A stretch of 44,837 nucleotides of DNA from Cylindrobasidium torrendii FP15055 ss-10 (taxonomy: Eukaryota > Basidiomycota > Agaricomycetes > Agaricales > Physalacriaceae), in assembly GCA_000934385.1 (NCBI GenBank), contig KN880632.1, forward strand, positions 1-44,837, in the 5' to 3' direction. The notes under the pieces are model-generated. The model was not told where the DNA came from and ran no database searches. It saw only the letters and a list, made by a program, of their open reading frames with translations. Positions within the stretch are counted from its first letter, which is position 1; every line of letters begins with the position of its first letter. The translations under genes and the position numbers were made by a program. Below, piece by piece: positions 3,833-34,358 of this stretch.

Positions 3833-6800
3833 CTACTCTTCAAGGTCGGAAGGCGTCAGGTACTCTCCATCCTCATCATCGCTCAGAACCTGCTTTCTCC
3901 CACTGCCCCTTTTGACCGCGCTCGGCCTCGAAGACACCCCAACACTATCATCATCCCTCGCTGGCCCTAGTCCCGGTGCACCAGGCAGCCCACTGTTGTT
4001 CATGGCCCTCGCGTATGCCCTATCAAACACCTTCTCCATCTCAATGGCATCGGTGTACACCCATGAGCCCTCCTGATTATACGTCCGTGCATTGCTGAAC
4101 ATCAGCTTCCAGTCCGCGCGGAACATATCAACTGTCTTGTAGAATGCCCCAGTCATCCTCTTTTGGATCTGTTGCATCGAAATAGGCGACTTAATGAGCT
4201 GGTAATAGTCCGCATATGCCTACGTAGCTGTCAATATCATGGCAGAGCTGACAAACAGAGAAGAACGCACCTTCTTCGAAGGCAGGACCATGAAAAGCTC
4301 TCGTCTGAGCCGACCCTCTTCAGCCGAGCATTCCCATACCGCCGAATAACACTGGTCAAAGGCCGCCTTCATACGCTCGCGCACATGCGGGCTGACCTCG
4401 GGCACCTTCGCTTTGCGTCGCCTCTGTGTACCCGTCAGCTCTACACATTGGAACATAATAGCGAACATACCGGCGCCCGGTCATCATCGTCATCGTCGCC
4501 TGCAACAGACGGCGTCAGAGACTTCTGGCCGCCCCTCTTCCTTTTGCTACCTGTCGGCGTATCGTAGTCCATCGCAGGAGCCTTGCCCTTCTTGCCCCTG
4601 GGTTTACGGCTGCTGCCAACACCAATATCCGACGAAGGCGTCCCACGACCAGAATCATATCGTGGTGTCGCTGCAGCAACACCACGCTTTTTCCGTGGCC
4701 TCTCCAACTCCTCCAAGTCTTCGCCGTCCTCGAGCGCCTGATAAACGAGATCTTCAGTACAATAAAATCTTCGGACAGGATAAACTCACCCTCGCCCAGG
4801 TATCATCATCCAGATTGTCCGTGTAGTTGACCACATTCCGCTTGCGCGCACCACGTCCCTCCACGATTTCTTCCTCCGTCGGAGGCGCAAAGGGCTCATC
4901 ACTACGGTAAAGCTCAGGCAGCTCCTCCACAGCCATGAGTGGTGGTGGTGGCTTGCCGCGGTGTCCAGCGTTCCGCCAAGATTCTGCGAGCTCACGTTCC
5001 CTGTTTGCATCATATTCTCTGAACACCGCAGCTTCCTCTTCCGAACGTGCCAACAAGCCATTGAGCTCCTCGTCGTTCATGTCACCAGCCTCCTCGTTGT
5101 CTTCCTCCTGGTCAGCCTCGAGGATGGATCGCTGAAAATGATTCTTAGCGTAGGCCTCCACGGAAAGAGTAAGCTCTACACACCAAGAACTCCTCCTGTT
5201 CTTCCTGCGTCGACTTGTTGTCGAAACGACCAGCCTGGATGACCTTGTCATCGATATCGAGTTTGAATCGCGCGCGCTGGTACATGGCTTCCTCCACACT
5301 CTTCTCGGTGATGAAGCGCAGAATCAATACGGCCTTGGTTTGTCCAATACGATGCGCACGATCCTGAGCTTGCAAATCTGCGTGCGGATTCCAATCAGAG
5401 TCGAAGCTGTAAAGCAATGTCAAGACGATAAAAGTCATGGCAGAAGACGAACATACATGATGACAGTGTCCGCAGTCTGCAAGTTCAGACCAAGACCACC
5501 GGCACGCGTCGACAGGATGAAGACCTTATACTCGGATTCCTTCGCGTTGAATAACTGCACATACGACGCGCGCTCCTCCGTCTTCGTCCCACCGTCCAGG
5601 CGAAGATACTTCCAGCCCATCATTTTCAGGAAGTCCTCCATGATGTCCATCACCTTGGTCATTTGGAAGAAGATCAAAACCTGAGCGCCAGTTAACATAA
5701 TGGACACGGAGCGGGGGGCAGACATACTCTGTGGCCAGTCGCAAAGAATTTTGGAAGAATGCGGTTGAGCAACTCAAGCTTGCCGGACGCGCGAATGAGC
5801 TTGTCATCGATGAGACCAGTTGGGTTGACCTTGTCTTCCACACTTTCAAACAAGAAAGGATGCTGGCAAATCTTGCGAAGTTGCATAAGCTCGTTGCTCA
5901 AGCCCTTGATACCTGCTGTTCTCAGTCTACAGGAGTCCGTCAATACGATAGCATGATCTATGGATAAGAGCAACGTACCCTCCCTTGCCATTGGACTCCG
6001 CAATCATCTTGTACTTCTTCATTTGCTTGTAAAGCTGGCTCTGCAATCCGCTCATCTTGGTCTTCAAGACCTTCTCGACCTTGTCCGGCAGTTCCGACTC
6101 AACATCCTTCTTGAGGCGACGCAACAGGAAGGGACGCAGCACCTTGTGCAGACGACGAATAATGAGCAGGGCCTCTTCTTCGTTCAGTTCAATCTTGTCG
6201 CCGGTATTTGCGAAAGGCGTGTTGAACCACTCGTCAAACGACTTTACAGAGTTGAAGATCTTGGGCAAGACGAAGTTCAGGAGCGACCAAAGTTCGGGAA
6301 GATTGTTTTGCAACGGAGTACCGGTGAGAATGAGACGATGGCGGGTGTGGTAGAAAGTCGAGAGGGTTTGGGAAAGCTTGCTCTGGGTGTTCTTCATGCG
6401 ATGACCCTCGTCTGCGCATGGTGAGTTGTAAATCAACAAGGGAAACCGACAACGTACCAATGATCATGTGCACCCAACGGAACTTGGACAACACAGGACG
6501 GTCCTTAATGATGTACTCGTAGGTCGTAAGGAGAACCTGGAAATATCCTGGGCGAAGGTCGTTCTGGAGTGCGCGACGCTGGGCAGGATTTCCCTTGTAC
6601 GAAATCATCCTGATAGCTGGTGCCCATTTCGCAAACTCGCCGGACCAATTGGTTAATGTGGATAGTGGAACAATGACGAGGAAGGGGCCAGGTTGGTTCT
6701 TGGATTCAATCAGGAAGGAGATGAGGGATATGGTTTGGATAGTCTTTCCGAGACCCTGAATCCAATGTCAATGTCAGCGCACGCCAGCAAGACTCAGTAC

Positions 6801-8600
6801 GCACCATCTCGTCGGCCAGAATACCGTTCAGCCTGTTGTTGTACAAGCTGACCATCCACTGGAGACCCTTCAGTTGGTATTCCTTTAACTTGCCGCCAAC
6901 GAGAATCTGAGGTTGGGCAGTGATCTTCTCCGAAATGCGATGAGCCACAGAGTAGTAATCCACTTTGCCCTTCTCCTTCTTCGCGTCTTCGTCGACCTGG
7001 GCGCCGAAAGTGGCCTCGCTCGTTGGTCCACTCTCCTGTTCGAAGTTGCCCATTTCGACACCTCCACTCTCGTTCTGCTGCGCGACAACCGCTTGGGCAA
7101 GACCTTCGAGATACGCGTCGGTTTGCTTGAGGAGATGTGTGATACGGGTGTCTTTGGCCGTATCAATGAGCTTCATGTAAGCCTCTTCATCGTCGGCCTT
7201 GAGGGCCTTGAGACGTTCCTTCGAGATGCGCTCGATACGCTTCTGTTCCTCTTTTTCGGTATGTACATGGAACGCCAATACGGCCTTGCCCAACCGGTTG
7301 ACACGATCCTGTGCGGCACGGTTGACGTTGAGAATCTCGCGGCCGTGGTTGGTGATGACCCGAAGCTGCTCAACATGTTTGTGCTTCGCCCGGCGCTCGC
7401 GCTCCGCCCGCTGGTTGCGCTCGAGGGTCTCTGTTTGCCGAGTATCGCGGAGGGTCGGCTTTCGGGCACGCTTGAAGTCGGCACGATTGACTGGAAGCAT
7501 AGAGCCATGGACAAGGCGCTCAGCCACAGCCTGGCGCATCGCGCGCTGCTTTTCGACCAGACGCAGAGACTTGAGTTCGATGAGGGCACGCAGTTTCCCG
7601 TGCGAAGGCTGAAACAAAAGCTGCTTGTCGTCTTCCAGCAAATTCTCCTCCACCAGTCCGCCTTCACCTGCCGTTGATGGCAACTCTTCTAGCTCTGACA
7701 TGCGCTGCTGGATGCGCACGTCGACGTAGCGGTCACGCTCCTGCATTATTTGGTTGACGTCCAGACCAGCAGGCATGATAGATGGCACAAGCAGACGCTG
7801 AAGATGGGTAGCGAACGCTTTGGGATCTATGTCTGGTTGGCGCTTAAGGTGAGAGAATGGGTGGCGATATGCGTTGTAAGGATATATCCCCGAGTTTGTG
7901 TCTTCTTCGAGGAAGGGGCCAGTGGGGAGGTCTGTGGGCTCTGGCTGTCCATCGTCCTCCACCTCCATCATAGCAATGTCGCTGATCCCGGACGCGTCTG
8001 ATTCCACTTTGGCAACATTGACGACACTGTCCACTATCTTGGCATCGACGTCGGGCGCACCTGCAGCTCTTAGCTGCTTCTCGAGGTCGGCTATTTGAGG
8101 GCCAGTAACCAGCATTCGCTTGCGCACATGGTCGGGAACACGCTCTTGGCGGCTGATGGCTTTGAAGGCAGCAATCTGAGCGCGGAGAACATCAATTTGG
8201 TCGGGCGTGAACGACACCGGCGTGACCGACTGCGGTGGGACGTGGGGTGCAGGGCCGGTCCCGTTGAGTGGAGGACCGCCGTTCATCATGGATATTTGAG
8301 CGTTCTGAGCTATTTGACGTTGTTGGTTGACTGTTGGACCGTCAGCAAGTACACCGCGCGTACCAAGCGAAGACATACCTGAAGCAACCGCCCTCATCAA
8401 ATTCTCCATCTCTCCGGGCTGTCCGTCCATGGGGTTGGCTCGTAAGTGGTTAATGCGCTGGGTACACCGCTTAGAACATCTGTCAAGACAGGAACGAACG
8501 AATTTTGACGCACATGCATTACGCTTTGGAACTGCTGCGGGTTAAGGATTTGATTGGGCATTGTTGGCGGCATTCGACTCCCAGCCATCGGGTTTGACAT
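3833..8600 (-). CDS. SNF2/STH1: SWI/SNF- or RSC-type chromatin-remodelling ATPase (Snf2/Sth1/BRG1 family)
   Basis: The catalytic motor of a nucleosome-remodelling complex in the nucleus. Twelve exons: 8600-8514, 8457-8379, 8330-6805, 6755-6458, 6411-5979, 5926-5728, 5680-5457, 5406-5184, 5131-4790, 4737-4471, 4423-4271 and 4219-3833, giving 4218 nt (1405 aa) with consistent phases. Domain order: QLQ (about 96-130), basic helical HSA region (about 330-430), SNF2 ATPase starting at [11 protein letters not shown] with Walker A GLGKT (565-569) and DEGH (664-667), helicase C with [15 protein letters not shown] and [15 protein letters not shown], the acidic SnAC region, a basic AT-hook-like linker, and a C-terminal bromodomain (about 1240-1345) with the acetyl-lysine Asn in TYNQEGS. 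QLQ, HSA and bromodomain together separate it from ISWI, CHD and INO80. Whether it serves SWI/SNF or RSC cannot be told here. Intron 2 (8378-8331) is 48 nt and stopless. Confidence 0.95.
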
Positions 8601-8868
8601 CGCGACTCGACGCGCCTAGGAAATCTCGCGTCACAGTCCGACCGCGATTTCGGTGCTGGTGGCTCGGAGGAAACAGCTGTAAACAATCGCTGACTCAGCA
8701 CACCGGGCCGATCATACGTGCCCTCATGCCAAACACTGCAAGCGAAGTTCCCCATCTTCCACAGGGGAAGAAAATACTAAGGCTAGTACAATTAGACATT
8801 CGATATTGCTGACCGCGCACCTCAGCGCTGGCCCGCCGTCAGATCTCTGTGGCGCATCGCACCTGACA
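8601..8868. promoter_or_regulatory. divergent region between SNF2/STH1 and tRNA-Ile
   Basis: This 268-bp gap carries the SNF2/STH1 promoter on the minus strand and the upstream flank of the plus-strand tRNA. No TATA box is obvious. Confidence 0.4.
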
Positions 8869-30100: not shown

Positions 30101-30480
30101 GAGTGTTGTCGGGAGTTTACTGGAGTATCCATTGGAGTGGCCGCGGATGGCGCCCTGCCTGTGGCAGGTATGATGTCCTCAAGGTCGGGCTAGTACGGGT
30201 CTCAAGAGAGTCTCAAAGGTAAACAGACCGCCTCCAACGTAAGAAAATTAGGCGCTGCAAGTGTAAAGGATATATGAAGTGTGCGGAAAGTACAGGTTTG
30301 AGCGTAAAACGGCGGTCGTGTGCAAAGGTGTGTGATGTGAGTCGCACGGATCAATTCTGACTGTCGTCCGACGTGGCGCTTATGGACGCTGGCCACGTCG
30401 CCCGAGTCGCAGAAGTAATCCTGGAATTGTCTGCGTGGAAGTACACTGCGGTAAGACTTGCCAGCGGTTCAAAATCTACA
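27151..30480. other. gene-poor stretch left of the fold-back element
   Basis: About 3.3 kb in which I find no supportable gene. Several open frames of 60-215 codons (for example 27324-27971 and 28222-28818 on the plus strand) have no domain-like residues and overlap others on the opposite strand. The UTP18 promoter lies at its left end. A minus-strand word resembling a tRNA T-arm at about 29083-29093 is not part of a complete cloverleaf. Confidence 0.45.
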
Positions 30481-30505
30481 GGATAATCCACCTGAGAGAC
30501 CCACA

Positions 30506-30564
30506 TAACCCACCTAATTAGATGATGGGAATGGGGGCTCCCCACCATCTAATTAGGTGGGTTA
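30506..30564. repeat. subterminal hairpin in left end of element
   Basis: Arms 30506-30524 (starts TAACCCACC) and 30546-30564 are perfectly complementary over 19 bp. The loop can pair further through a GGGG/CCCC core. An identical copy lies in the right end at 33319-33377. It sits 17 bp from the tip, where a transposase would be expected to bind. Confidence 0.85.
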
Positions 30565-31205
30565 AGGCGTTTTCGCGTCTATTGAGAATAACTTGCATTT
30601 TTCAGGGCCGGAGACAGTATCCGAAGACGAAACCGCGTGGCGGAAGGTCTAGCATGCGGGTCGTCGGCACCAGCGAGCACAAGGCTTGCGCACACCAGAG
30701 TCCCGCCCCCGACACGGTCCCGCCATACCCGCCGTATATCAAAGGCTAGAAAATCCGTAAAATAGCCATAAATCTCAAATAAATTCCTACGCGCTCTTTC
30801 AGTGGACTCGTGTCCTTCCGTCTATTTTAAGAAGTATTGAACTCTGTTGGCGCGCCTTTCCGAGCAAACGTCCAACGCATGAGCGGGATGTATGGTGAGC
30901 ACCTCTGAGGAGTCTGTGGAATGAGCTTTCGAATGAATTTTGCTTATTCCTTGAAGTGCGTCACTTGCGCCGCGATGTCTGAGCCAGGTCTGAGCCTCAG
31001 AGCCACTTTCGTAGCATCCGGCGCCACCGATCGTTGTAAACTTGGCGCATCGACGCCCCATATTGTGCGCTACGTCTCATGGCGCTCACGCGAGTTCAAC
31101 ACTCGATGAATAAAGATATTTCGCTGGTAAAGCTCCTCTTATTTCTCCCAATTACATAACATAAGTGCAAAGAGGCGTTCAGTCGCGAACTGGCCATTCG
31201 ACAAA

Positions 31206-31246
31206 TAGCCAGTTCCCGAGAACAAGCTATTCTCGGGAACTGGCTA
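31206..31246. repeat. internal hairpin 1 of element
   Basis: Perfect 17-bp arms (TAGCCAGTTCCCGAGAA and its complement) with a 7-nt loop. Confidence 0.9.
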
Positions 31247-31386
31247 CATTGCGCCACCTTTGCAAGCCGGACGTCTGCCACTGGTTTACAATAGAGTGAA
31301 GTACAATAGGATCTCATTAACACTGGCATTGCTCACAACACAGCAAGTATTTCTTGAGCGCGACGTGAATGCGTACCTGGGCATTG

Positions 31387-31427
31387 TAGCCAGTTCCCGA
31401 GGAGAGCTTGTTCTCGGGAACTGGCTA
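31387..31427. repeat. internal hairpin 2 of element
   Basis: Perfect 15-bp arms with the same TAGCCAGTTCCCGAG core and an 11-nt loop of different sequence. Confidence 0.9.
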
Positions 31428-31557
31428 TTTTTTGCCATCCTTGTACAGTACAACGGAAGCCCCCAGTGTGTTCTGGCCTCAACGTGTGTGAAACATGATG
31501 ATCCTTGCTTATACTACTACAGGTATTATTTGAGCACAAAGGTATACCACATTATTG

Positions 31558-31598
31558 TGGCCAGTTCCCGAGACTTGTGCATTCTCGGGAACTGGCCA
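31558..31598. repeat. internal hairpin 3 of element
   Basis: Perfect 16-bp arms starting TGGCCAGTTCCCGAGA with a 9-nt loop. The outer A-T pair of the motif is changed to G-C on both sides, a compensatory change that keeps pairing. Confidence 0.9.
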
Positions 31599-32322
31599 TT
31601 CTGCGCCACCCAACCCCGCAATGCCAGGCTCACATAACTTGAGATATGCTTTCTGCACGTACTCCTCATTGTATTTAATGAAGGTAAGAAGCTTTGTGGC
31701 TTCATTGTGTTTCTGGACAAGTTTCAGCAAGTTCTTTGTGGGATATCGAGGTTTGGTGAAGACTGAAGAGGTTAATACTAGCAAGTTGGCGGCCACTTGC
31801 AGTGGCCCACGGCTTAGTACGCATATCTGCTTGAGCACCACACAATATGTTGAACTGTACAAGGTGAGCTTACTCATTCATTCTTATAAATCGAATTTCC
31901 GGTGAAAGAGAACCTTGACATTGAGATATAGTAAAGCCATTCTATGCATAGGCTCTCATCTTCGTGGTCTGAAAATGCGAAATGTGAGAATTGAGAAAAA
32001 CATCGAACCAGCTCAAGACGAACGTGACTTCACATGTCAACAACATATCCCCAAGTCGAGATGGTCATACCTGTTAAATTGCGTCCTACAGAGGCCATTG
32101 TTTCGCGAACTGGCTAGCCGCCGATCGGAAACTGGCTAACCACCCACCGATCGGGAACTGGCTGGGTGCCACTCGCGGCCTTGCTTCACGCAGCCATAAA
32201 AATCGCTGTGGCTGCAAGTTGTTACATATAACAGCACCGTCGCTGTCCGTAAACATTATGGCAGCTCAAAGGCTATGGAGCATACACATAGATTCGACGT
32301 CTCGAGAGGGCATAGTACATTA

Positions 32323-32363
32323 TAGCCAGTTCCCGAGATATACACATCTTCGGGAGCTGGCTA
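32323..32363. repeat. internal hairpin 4 of element (imperfect)
   Basis: The left arm TAGCCAGTTCCCGAGA faces TCTTCGGGAGCTGGCTA, so pairing is broken at two positions. Same motif family as the other hairpins. Confidence 0.8.
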
Positions 32364-32499
32364 ATGTATGGTTACATATCTAGTAGCTCTAACCGTTGTG
32401 CTGCACATAAGCAATACTTTATAACCTTGTTACTGGGGTGTTTGAAATATAATTTTGAGCCCTGCACGAAGGTGGTCCTTCATAGCAGATGACGCATGA

Positions 32500-32540
32500 T
32501 AGCCAGTTCCCGAGAATTGCGCATTCTCGGGAAATGGCTA
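32500..32540. repeat. internal hairpin 5 of element
   Basis: 17-bp arms of the TAGCCAGTTCCCGAGAA motif with one mismatch (GGGAAATGG instead of GGGAACTGG) and a 7-nt loop. Confidence 0.88.
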
Positions 32541-32639
32541 CAATGTGTTGACACACCTTCATGCTTGAATGATTATGTTTAGGGACCAATGCCAGTGGGA
32601 ACGAGTATTATGCTACACACAAGTTAAGGCTTCATCGCA

Positions 32640-33394
32640 ATGAAGGAAACCCGCTGAGCGAGGGTGGCGTACCATAGCCAGTTCCCGACAAGAGCTGATT
32701 CTCGGGAACTGGCTATTCTTTGAATGGCCAGTTCGCGGCTGAATGCCTGATTTGGGGCAAGTACAAGGAACTCTTATGAGCGAAATGCATGTATTTAACG
32801 GGCGGCAGACTCGCGCAAGCGCTGTCAGACTTAGCGCGCAATATGAGGCGTCGGTGTGCTAAGTTCACACCGATCGGCGGTGCTGGACTACGAAAAGCGG
32901 CTCAGAAATCGCGGCGCAAGCGGCGCGCTATACAAGACAAGTGAAGACCATACGAAAGCTCATTTCGGCGGCTCCTCAGATATACTCACCACACATTTCG
33001 CCCATGCGTTGGACGTTTGCTCGGAAAGGCGCGCCAACAGAGTTCAATACTTCTTAAAAAGACGGAAGGACACGAGTCCACTGAAAGAGCACGTAGGAAT
33101 TTATTTGAGATTTATGGCTACTTTACGGATTTTCTAGCCTTTGATATACGGCGGGTATGGCGGGACCGTGTTGGGGAGCGGGACTCTGGTGTGCGCAGCC
33201 TTGTGCTCGCTGGTGCCGACGACCCGCATGCTAGACCTTCCGCCACGCGGTTTCGTCTTCGGATACTGTCTCCGGCCCTGAAAAATGCAAGTTATTCTCA
33301 ATAGACGCGAAAACGCCTTAACCCACCTAATTAGATGGTGGGGAGCCCCCATTCCCATCATCTAATTAGGTGGGTTATGTGGGTCTCTCAGGTG
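32640..33394 (-). repeat. right long terminal inverted repeat
   Basis: Inverted copy of 30489 to about 31265. It ends exactly at CTCTCAGGTG before the duplicated GGATAATC. It contains the same subterminal hairpin (33319-33377). The inner limit is approximate. Confidence 0.8.
32675..32715. repeat. internal hairpin 6 of element
   Basis: 14-bp perfect arms (TAGCCAGTTCCCGA) with a 13-nt loop. By position it is the partner of hairpin 1 in the opposite arm of the fold-back. Confidence 0.88.
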
Positions 33395-33402
33395 GGATAA
33401 TC

Positions 33403-34358
33403 ACTTATGTTGGACTGATAATCGATGCTTGGGTCGTGTGCTCTGAATCTGCCGAAGAGTTGGGGCCAATAGAAGAATGCAAAGATCTCATCCATCCGAT
33501 TTGAAAGTTAGAAGTGAAGCGAGCGTGCCTTGCGAAGCGTAGCATCAGAATTTGGCTTAGCAGCTGCAGTAAAAAAAGAGGGATCAGCGACTACTTTCAG
33601 CGTCTCTGCGTGCACCGCCGCTCAGGAGGAGCAACCTCCTCCCCGACGACCGACTGCACGGTCTATTCACCATGCGGTAGCAGTACCCCGACTCGGCTAC
33701 GGAGTTGGCCCGGTTCAAATCAGCGACTGTACATATCAAAAAAGCACTGCAAATTGGTCCTCGGGGGATCTTTGACACGGGAGCATTGCCCGAGACGACC
33801 GTAACTTCGGACGAAAAGAGGGATCTACTAGCCAAGAAAAAGAATATCTGTTGCAATGGCCAGCAGACCATAAAGAAGAAGTAAAGAAAGAGAGAAATTG
33901 GATCAACGCTCTCTACCAGCGGCGGCAGGCGCTCGGCAGACGCTCGGCAGGCGGCGGCGATGGTAATTTGATGCGCTGGGATCGAATCCGCGTGGAAAAG
34001 ATCAATTTTGCCGCCGACGTGTTCAGGCTGCGCATGGTTCAGGTCGTCCTAGGTCGTCCCGGTCGCTCCTGTTGAGTGAAATGTGGTAAAATGTGCTCTT
34101 TGTCTCTTGTTCAACGATTAGCATGTCGACGACAACATGTTGCAGCAGTTGCCAACTCAGAAAGCCAGGTTTGGACTGCCTCGTGTCGTCTACGTTTTCC
34201 GTAAAAAGCCTCCGTGCCGGCATGTCAGTTACCTCCGCTAGGATGTGCACATGTTGGCCTATTGGATCTATCCAGGGGTAGATTTACACGCGGATGAGAT
34301 CTGGGCTGGAAAGCATAAATACCCCGAGCATGAACTGCTTTCGGGTCAGCTCCCCGTC
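33403..34358. other. intergenic stretch right of element, with promoter of FYVE gene
   Basis: About 950 bp. An open frame about 33778-34075 (QWPADHKEEVKKERNWINAL and onward) has no ATG start and no family I recognise. A TATA-like ATAAATA is at 34315-34321, about 40 bp before the FYVE-gene ATG. Confidence 0.45.

What the first reader, a model, noticed from the sequence alone, without database searches (positions are those of the whole stretch)
31206..32715. Array of at least six short hairpins on a shared motif inside the element
Six inverted repeats use the same core (AGCCAGTTCCCGAG with its complement) but different loops of 7-13 nt, spaced about 130-720 bp, with further single half-sites at about 31185, 32100-32160 and 32723. 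Arms are conserved where loops and surroundings are not, and hairpin 3 shows a paired compensatory change. This suggests selection on dyad symmetry: a protein-binding array, a recombination or folding signal, or RNA hairpins feeding a small-RNA path. I know of no described fungal element with this pattern.
Basis: partly seen in the sequence, partly recalled or inferred. Interest (0 to 1): 0.87.

Follow-up and report, generated by a model that had tools for sequence, protein, structure and literature searches.

The report
Paired short sites in mushroom transposon
The six "hairpins" are pairs of a short 12-letter site set at a fixed distance inside a decayed mushroom jumping gene of the KDZ kind, and they look like docking sites for a protein rather than like RNA hairpins.

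Summary
Six inverted repeats, each 41 bp (15-bp arm, 11-bp spacer, 15-bp arm), lie at 31206-32715 in a 2906-bp element (30489-33394) with long inverted terminal repeats and an 8-bp target duplication. The element is a decayed, internally deleted KDZ (Kyakuja-Dileera-Zisupton) transposon: it carries a frameshifted piece of KDZ transposase (31617-31863), and its ends resemble those of a KDZ element in the same genome (contigs C465/C211; Cylindrobasidium torrendii by annotation). That element carries the same core, CCAGTTCCCG, as tandem direct copies, not dyads. Exact close pairs of the core, direct or facing, were found in the 29.3-Mb assembly only in these two elements. The conserved unit is the half-site: close opposite-strand neighbours are always 25 bp apart, spacers vary, and compensatory pairing is not supported. 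Best reading: an array of dimer-binding sites for an element-encoded protein (transposase or accessory protein). A close rival is an anti-silencing target like plant VANC sites, since the KDZ relative also carries a TET-like gene. Small-RNA or folding roles are not supported. Subterminal site arrays are known in CACTA and hAT elements; I saw none reported for KDZ. No binding was tested.

The parts
30481..30488 (.). left copy of 8-bp target-site duplication GGATAATC
33395..33402 (.). right copy of 8-bp target-site duplication GGATAATC
30489..33394 (.). decayed non-autonomous KDZ transposon, 2906 bp, termini CACCTGAGAG..CTCTCAGGTG
   Evidence: termini and TSD; KDZ relic; terminal similarity to C211/C465
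30489..30888 (+). outer layer of left terminal inverted repeat (first 197 bp perfect, 94-98% in the later 50-bp blocks to 400 bp)
32996..33394 (-). outer layer of right terminal inverted repeat
30507..30563 (+). terminal hairpin (23-bp stem with one mismatch) in left inverted repeat; its stem varies in a compensating way among four KDZ-like termini
33320..33376 (-). terminal hairpin in right inverted repeat
31183..31194 (-). single half-site, 25 bp from the left half-site of dyad 1
31206..31246 (.). dyad 1 (15-11-15), arms 15/15 complementary
31387..31427 (.). dyad 2, arms 15/15
31558..31598 (.). dyad 3, arms 15/15, with the paired A-T to G-C change
31617..31863 (-). frameshifted relic of the C-terminal part of a KDZ transposase (P0002 residues 579-653); matches of other KDZ proteins extend it to about 31995
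32103..32114 (-). half-site 1 of the central direct cluster
32125..32136 (-). half-site 2 of the central direct cluster
32151..32162 (-). half-site 3 of the central direct cluster
32323..32363 (.). dyad 4, arms 13/15
32500..32540 (.). dyad 5, arms 14/15
32675..32715 (.). dyad 6, arms 14/15
32727..32738 (+). single half-site, 25 bp from the right half-site of dyad 6

Best explanation
The element is a decayed deletion derivative of a KDZ DNA transposon. Its conserved unit is a 10-12 bp half-site (about TRGCCAGTTCCCGA). Two half-sites facing each other, start to start exactly 25 bp apart, form a site for a protein dimer, and three such sites sit in the inner part of each end, about 650-1110 bp from the termini. 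An element-encoded DNA-binding protein (the KDZ transposase or an accessory protein) binds them to recognise the element's own DNA and to help assemble the transposition complex on both ends. Shown: the sites, their fixed geometry, their conservation, their confinement (as exact close pairs) to two elements of this genome, and the KDZ relic. Inferred: that a protein binds, that it is a dimer, that the element family encodes it, and that its role is in transposition.
For: KDZ origin: 8-bp TSD and long inverted repeats; frameshifted KDZ transposase relic, E 4e-15 with P0002, the transposase of C465, and hits at or next to the same place by 16 of 163 query proteins against 1 in the reversed control; terminal similarity to C211 (68% over 95 bp, E 3e-4 in a search of five sequences, reversed control nothing at E 1), the contig whose first 219 bp equal the start of KDZ contig C465. 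KDZ identity of C465: PF18758, 1.4e-64 for P0002. Binding array: the same core in both elements, 17 half-sites here and 9 in C465; exact close direct pairs of CCAGTTCCCG only in C465/C211 (11 matches, control 0) and exact facing pairs only here (8 matches = 4 dyads on both strands, control 0). Fixed spacing: the 8 opposite-strand neighbour pairs closer than 100 bp are all exactly 25 bp apart (positions). Location: about base 750-870 from the terminus in C211/C465, and from base 695 (left) and 657 (right) here. Conservation of cores over surroundings between the two halves: 0.967 of 60 against 0.665 of 480 positions; 3 of 540 circular shifts, the true one included, reach it.
Against: The sites are far from the ends for a transposition complex. 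C465 also has four half-sites at 5674-5757, over 6 kb from the left terminus, and the window element has a central cluster; end recognition does not explain these. The arrangement differs between the two elements. In one terminus-like locus no array is seen and in others the ends were not reached. No binding protein is identified and no binding was tested.
Confidence: 0.42

Rival explanations
1. The sites are targets of an element-encoded anti-silencing protein, as VANC sites are in Arabidopsis VANDAL elements: a protein binds clusters of the motif in non-coding stretches and brings about removal of DNA methylation there, perhaps with the element's own TET-like enzyme.
For: In C465 the exact cores lie in two arrays, one inside the terminal repeat and one between an open frame ending at 5487 and the stop of the TET-like gene just below 6071; none lies in the gap between the starts of the TET-like and transposase genes (7019 to 8809). 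They are direct and dense, as reported for VANC21 targets (PMC5735166, passages). C465 encodes a TET-like protein: best fold match CcTet of Coprinopsis cinerea, E 2.7e-9, TM-score 0.57, 13% identity, with H172, D174 and H225 invariant in 22 aligned sequences, itself included.
Against: The window element uses mostly dyads at fixed spacing. Three one-mismatch copies of the 10-mer (4632, 4845, 6361) lie in open frames of C465, where 0.7 such copies are expected in the whole contig. No DNA-binding anti-silencing protein is identified. P0001 itself has no Pfam hit. Other gene models of C465 are open frames only.
Confidence: 0.28
2. A host protein binds the half-site, and the element family has multiplied it.
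For: The motif is short and well kept, as host sites can be (inference).
Against: Outside the two elements the 13-mer is not enriched: 37 matches against 56 in the control; no exact close pair elsewhere.
Confidence: 0.1
3. The dyads act as hairpins, in RNA feeding a small-RNA path or in extruded DNA.
For: Arms are 13-15 of 15 complementary in all six. Copies that are few and alike leave little room for covariation to show (11 of 15 pairs never vary).
Against: No covariation above shuffles; direct, unpaired copies in the relative; no Rfam match at gathering threshold in 30400-33500; spacer length is fixed at 11, which an RNA loop does not need.
Confidence: 0.08
4. A neutral by-product: a repeat unit was duplicated inside the element and the copies have no function.
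For: The unit is repeated and the element is decayed and found once.
Against: Flanks and spacers have lost their similarity while arms have not, and cores outlast their surroundings between the two halves. The same core recurs in a diverged KDZ element in another arrangement.
Confidence: 0.12

Closest known systems
CACTA (En/Spm-type) subterminal repeat arrays, e.g. soybean Tgmt* and Tgm1 (PMC2613891, passages read)
   Same: Direct and inverted copies of a short motif in the subterminal regions; Tgmt* can form 12 and 2 stem-loops; the motif differs between families; in En/Spm an element-encoded protein (TNPA) recognises the repeats.
   Different: Tgmt* has 13-bp CACTA termini and a 3-bp target duplication; this element has long inverted repeats, CACCTGAG termini and an 8-bp duplication. 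Plant, not fungal.
hAT subterminal repeats, e.g. Hermes (PMC10368747, passages read)
   Same: 8-bp target duplication; short sites in both orientations, two pairs palindromic; BED domains of the transposase bind a quasi-palindromic pair.
   Different: Hermes sites have 4-bp cores, densest near the tips; here 10-12 bp cores about 650-1110 bp from the ends. The coding relic is KDZ.
VANDAL21 / VANC21 motif arrays (PMC5735166, abstract and passages read)
   Same: Element-specific short motif, dense in non-coding parts.
   Different: Plant elements (VANDALs are MULE-type, recalled); same-orientation tandem copies; no fixed-spacing dyads in the passages I read.
KDZ1-3 of Cryptococcus neoformans (PMC12810828, passages) and Zisupton (PMC12730594, outline with abstract, passages and section 3.2.1)
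   Same: KDZ transposase, inverted repeats, 8-bp target duplication (KDZ1, Zisupton).
   Different: KDZ1 has 241-bp inverted repeats; the word 'subterminal' occurs 0 times in the main text of both papers.

Membership tests
KDZ (Kyakuja-Dileera-Zisupton) DNA transposon, non-autonomous | KDZ transposase gene, or relic of one | tested here: met
   Frameshifted C-terminal relic at 31617-31863, E 4e-15. The KDZ catalytic domain itself was not found in the element.
KDZ (Kyakuja-Dileera-Zisupton) DNA transposon, non-autonomous | 8-bp target-site duplication (Zisupton, KDZ1) | tested here: met
   GGATAATC on both sides.
KDZ (Kyakuja-Dileera-Zisupton) DNA transposon, non-autonomous | Termini shared with a KDZ-coding element of the same genome | tested here: met
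   68% over 95 bp with C211, joined to KDZ contig C465 by an exact 219-bp overlap; the join rests on that overlap and could be to a close copy.
KDZ (Kyakuja-Dileera-Zisupton) DNA transposon, non-autonomous | Moved in trans by a KDZ transposase | not testable with these tools
   Needs an excision assay.
Kyakuja branch | 7-bp duplication and no inverted repeats (PMC12730594, section 3.2.1) | tested here: not met
   8 bp and long inverted repeats.
Zisupton branch | Place of the transposase in the KDZ tree | not tested
   No tree was built.
CACTA (En/Spm) | CACTA termini, 2-3 bp duplication | tested here: not met
   CACCTGAG termini, 8-bp duplication.
hAT | hAT transposase | not tested
   No hAT search was made; the 8-bp duplication alone would fit.
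VANC-type anti-silencing target | Element-specific motif clustered in non-coding DNA | tested here: met
   three weaker copies in C465 open frames.
VANC-type anti-silencing target | Bound by an element protein that removes methylation | not testable with these tools
   Needs binding and methylation data.
RNA hairpin array | Compensatory changes in the stems above chance | tested here: not met
   1 two-sided change in 15 pairs, 84 of 500 shuffles reach it.

The most novel reading that the evidence does not exclude
Fungal KDZ transposons that carry TET-like dioxygenases mark their own non-coding DNA with family-specific arrays of a short site, and an element protein bound there directs demethylation to the element: a fungal counterpart of the plant VANC system, built independently.
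Probability: 0.15. Interest if true: 0.8.

Novelty: new variant of a known kind. Interest (0 to 1): 0.5.

Why it matters
KDZ transposases turn up in many mushroom genomes and KDZ elements move in Cryptococcus (PMC12810828, passages). I saw no account of which DNA sites such elements use to recognise themselves in the paper listings and passages. A 10-12 bp core, two arrangements of it and a 25-bp rule give a site that can be tested directly by mobility shift or by a mini-transposon assay. The TET-like gene on the relative also makes targeted demethylation a testable question.

Tried and rejected
RNA hairpins: no covariation above shuffles, no Rfam match. Plasmid collection: no match, as expected for a fungus. 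Other genomic copies: none found for the whole element or its first 122 bp, so copy-by-copy decay could not be measured; left-right comparison within the element was used instead. Nucleosome-like spacing of about 175 bp (181, 171, 177, 175): noted but not claimed, because dyads 1/6 and 2/5 align as mirror copies, so only about two intervals are independent. Site arrays in other KDZ loci: tandem-repeat scans of 12 KDZ loci (L044-L055) and L088, and a repeated-10-mer scan of 10 of the 12 and L088, gave no array of the present kind, only a hexamer repeat of 4.5 copies (seen in L047 and L052, the same place), two-copy repeats, and one 10-mer three times far apart in L049; these loci are 3-5.5 kb pieces around the transposase and need not reach the ends, so this says little. 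KDZ relics in 11 loci with similar termini: none at E 1e-4, but four of them hold only 114-227 bp of the element; the KDZ nature of the C79/C229/C334/C492 and C87 termini rests on terminal similarity only. The terminus pattern with three mismatches is close to chance (119 matches, control 110). A homology search with the TET-like open frame, still holding intron and out-of-frame parts, gave only its own protein; repeated with the annotated protein it gave 44, itself included. A tblastn with a gapped copy of P0001 gave nothing and was repeated correctly.

Full report
What is there. The window is contig C202 of a 29.3-Mb, 494-contig assembly. A protein of an 11,687-bp contig, the length of C465 in this assembly, is recorded as from Cylindrobasidium torrendii FP15055 ss-10, a mushroom of the Agaricales. 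The finding lies in an element of 2906 bp, 30489-33394, flanked by GGATAATC on both sides. Its ends are inverted repeats: the first 197 bp are identical, the 50-bp blocks to 400 bp are 94% or more, and beyond that similarity is 52-86% per block, the alignment ending at dyad 2 on the left and dyad 5 on the right.

The six dyads. All are 41 bp: 15-bp arm, 11-bp spacer, 15-bp arm. Mean pairwise identity is 0.956 and 0.911 in the two arms, 0.473 in the spacer and 0.285 and 0.292 in the 70-bp flanks. Three dyads are perfect, two have one mismatch and one has two. With the single half-sites there are 17 copies with at most two mismatches to GCCAGTTCCCGA. From the positions, all 8 pairs of neighbouring half-sites on opposite strands that lie closer than 100 bp are exactly 25 bp apart, start to start: 31183/31208/31233, 31389/31414, 31560/31585, 32325/32350, 32502/32527, 32677/32702/32727. 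The central three, at 32103, 32125 and 32151, are direct copies 22 and 26 bp apart.

Not pairing but half-sites. Over the six dyads, 1 of 15 pairs has a change on both sides, 84 of 500 shuffles reach this, and 74 of 500 reach the covariation score; 11 of 15 pairs never vary, so the test has little power. The compensatory change in dyad 3 is real but is no evidence for pairing. The left and right halves of the element, compared outside the well-kept outer 400 bp, keep 96.7% of 60 half-site core positions and 66.5% of 480 others; 3 of 540 circular shifts, the true position included, reach this.

A relative with the same site in another arrangement. A genome-wide scan for GCCAGTTCCCGAG with up to one mismatch gave 55 places against 56 for the reversed control; 12 lie in this element, 5 in C465, 1 in C211 and 37 elsewhere, so the site is not enriched in the host. 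Exact close direct pairs of CCAGTTCCCG (8-30 bp between) occur 11 times, 7 in C465 and 4 in C211, control 0. Exact facing pairs (5-35 bp between) occur 8 times, which are four dyads read on both strands, all in this element, control 0. C465 and C211 share their first 219 bp exactly, in opposite orientation, so the 4 pairs in C211 are the same sequence as 4 of those in C465. C465 bases 229-390 reappear inverted at its other end with one mismatch, so C465 is an element with long inverted repeats, and C211 holds one outer end of it or of a close copy. That end, CACCAGTGTGACCCACAT reading inwards from C211:904, aligns with the end of the window element at 68% over 95 bp, E 3e-4 in a search of five sequences; the reversed control gave nothing at E 1. 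The array in C465 sits at about base 750-870 from that terminus; in the window element the sites begin at base 695 (left) and 657 (right). A second array, 5674-5757, lies between an open frame that ends at 5487 and the stop of the TET-like gene just below 6071. Three further one-mismatch copies of the 10-mer, against 0.7 expected, lie in C465 open frames.

C465 is a KDZ transposon. Its predicted protein P0002 has the KDZ domain (PF18758, 1.4e-64), and a search with joined pieces of the gene gave 307 relatives among the 7994 candidates scored; the 120 listed all carry PF18758. The genome search gave 36 KDZ matches on 21 contigs, a lower bound. The second gene, P0001, has no Pfam hit, but its predicted structure (mean pLDDT 84.1) matches the Coprinopsis dioxygenase CcTet best (E 2.7e-9, TM-score 0.57, 13% identity), then other TET-type enzymes, then more distant oxygenases such as AlkB. 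One relative, P0156, has a Tet_JBP match below the curated cut-off.

The window element is a KDZ derivative. Between dyad 3 and the central cluster, on the minus strand, lie two pieces of the KDZ transposase C-terminus in different frames (31617-31724 and 31729-31863, P0002 residues 618-653 and 579-619, joint E 4e-15). Of 163 proteins searched (120 KDZ-type, 43 TET-like), 16, all KDZ-type, hit this stretch or its continuation to 31995; the reversed sequence gave 1 hit, by a TET-like protein. No open frame of 150 aa or more lies within the element.

How it most likely works. A short site repeated in one element family, in dyads of exact spacing here and in tandem there, found as close pairs only in these elements and better kept than its surroundings, is what a protein that recognises the element would need. 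I favour recognition for transposition, by the transposase or an accessory protein, because the sites lie in the inner part of the ends of both elements and are kept in a deletion derivative. The second array in the middle of C465, the placing of the arrays in non-coding gaps and the TET-like gene keep an anti-silencing role, as for VANC in Arabidopsis (PMC5735166, passages), close behind. Neither was tested.

What is known. In the soybean CACTA element Tgmt*, direct and inverted copies of a 17-bp motif can form 12 and 2 stem-loops in the two borders, and En/Spm's TNPA recognises such repeats (PMC2613891, passages). In Hermes, subterminal repeats, some palindromic, bind BED domains, in a pair at one site (PMC10368747, passages). 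KDZ1 of Cryptococcus is about 11 kb with 241-bp inverted repeats and 8-bp duplications (PMC12810828, passages); Zisupton makes 8-bp and Kyakuja 7-bp duplications, the latter without inverted repeats (PMC12730594, passages and section 3.2.1). Of paper searches for subterminal sites in KDZ or basidiomycete transposons, one search listed 10 of 103 papers, none with the word Zisupton; one search listed 3 of 3, none with both KDZ or Zisupton and 'subterminal'; one search found 0. The library lacks most subscription papers, so this is weak evidence of novelty. The kind of feature is known; its occurrence in KDZ elements, the two arrangements and the 25-bp rule I have not seen reported.

Limits. One copy only, an assembly broken at repeats, a join by overlap, no other fungal genome at hand, gene models of C465 known only for two proteins, and no experiment.

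Noticed in passing
window 30507-30563 and 33320-33376; C211 830-886 (minus), C229 153-209 (minus), L069 1519-1575: A terminal hairpin just inside the ends of four KDZ-like termini keeps its stem through compensatory changes: 8 of 23 pairs with two-sided changes, 11 cells, each reached by 1 of 500 shuffles. The four were picked by eye, so the count leans towards pairing; still, here dyad symmetry itself seems to be kept, unlike in the six dyads.
   Followed up: partly
C465:6071-7019 (L041/L043): TET-like dioxygenase gene inside the KDZ element, diverged beyond Pfam's Tet_JBP model but with a TET-like predicted fold.
   Followed up: partly
L069:1602 (C87): A third KDZ-like terminus has one exact copy of CCAGTTCCCG (minus strand) about 100 bp inside its end.
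   Followed up: no
G000 contigs C79:104759 and C334:114: Identical KDZ-like termini whose outer flanks, CGCCTTGC and its complement, look like the two 8-bp duplications of one insertion split over two contigs.
   Followed up: no
window 30489-31428 against 32499-33394: The inverted repeat has two layers: outer 400 bp nearly identical, then a sudden fall to about two thirds identity, as if the outer part had been homogenised or replaced.
   Followed up: no
window 32121-32128, 32147-32154, 32870-32877: The palindrome CCGATCGG overlaps two of the central half-sites and recurs once in the right inverted repeat.
   Followed up: no
window 31206, 31387, 31558, 32323, 32500, 32675: Within each set of three the dyads are 171-181 bp apart, near a nucleosome repeat length (recalled); only about two of the four intervals are independent.
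   Followed up: no
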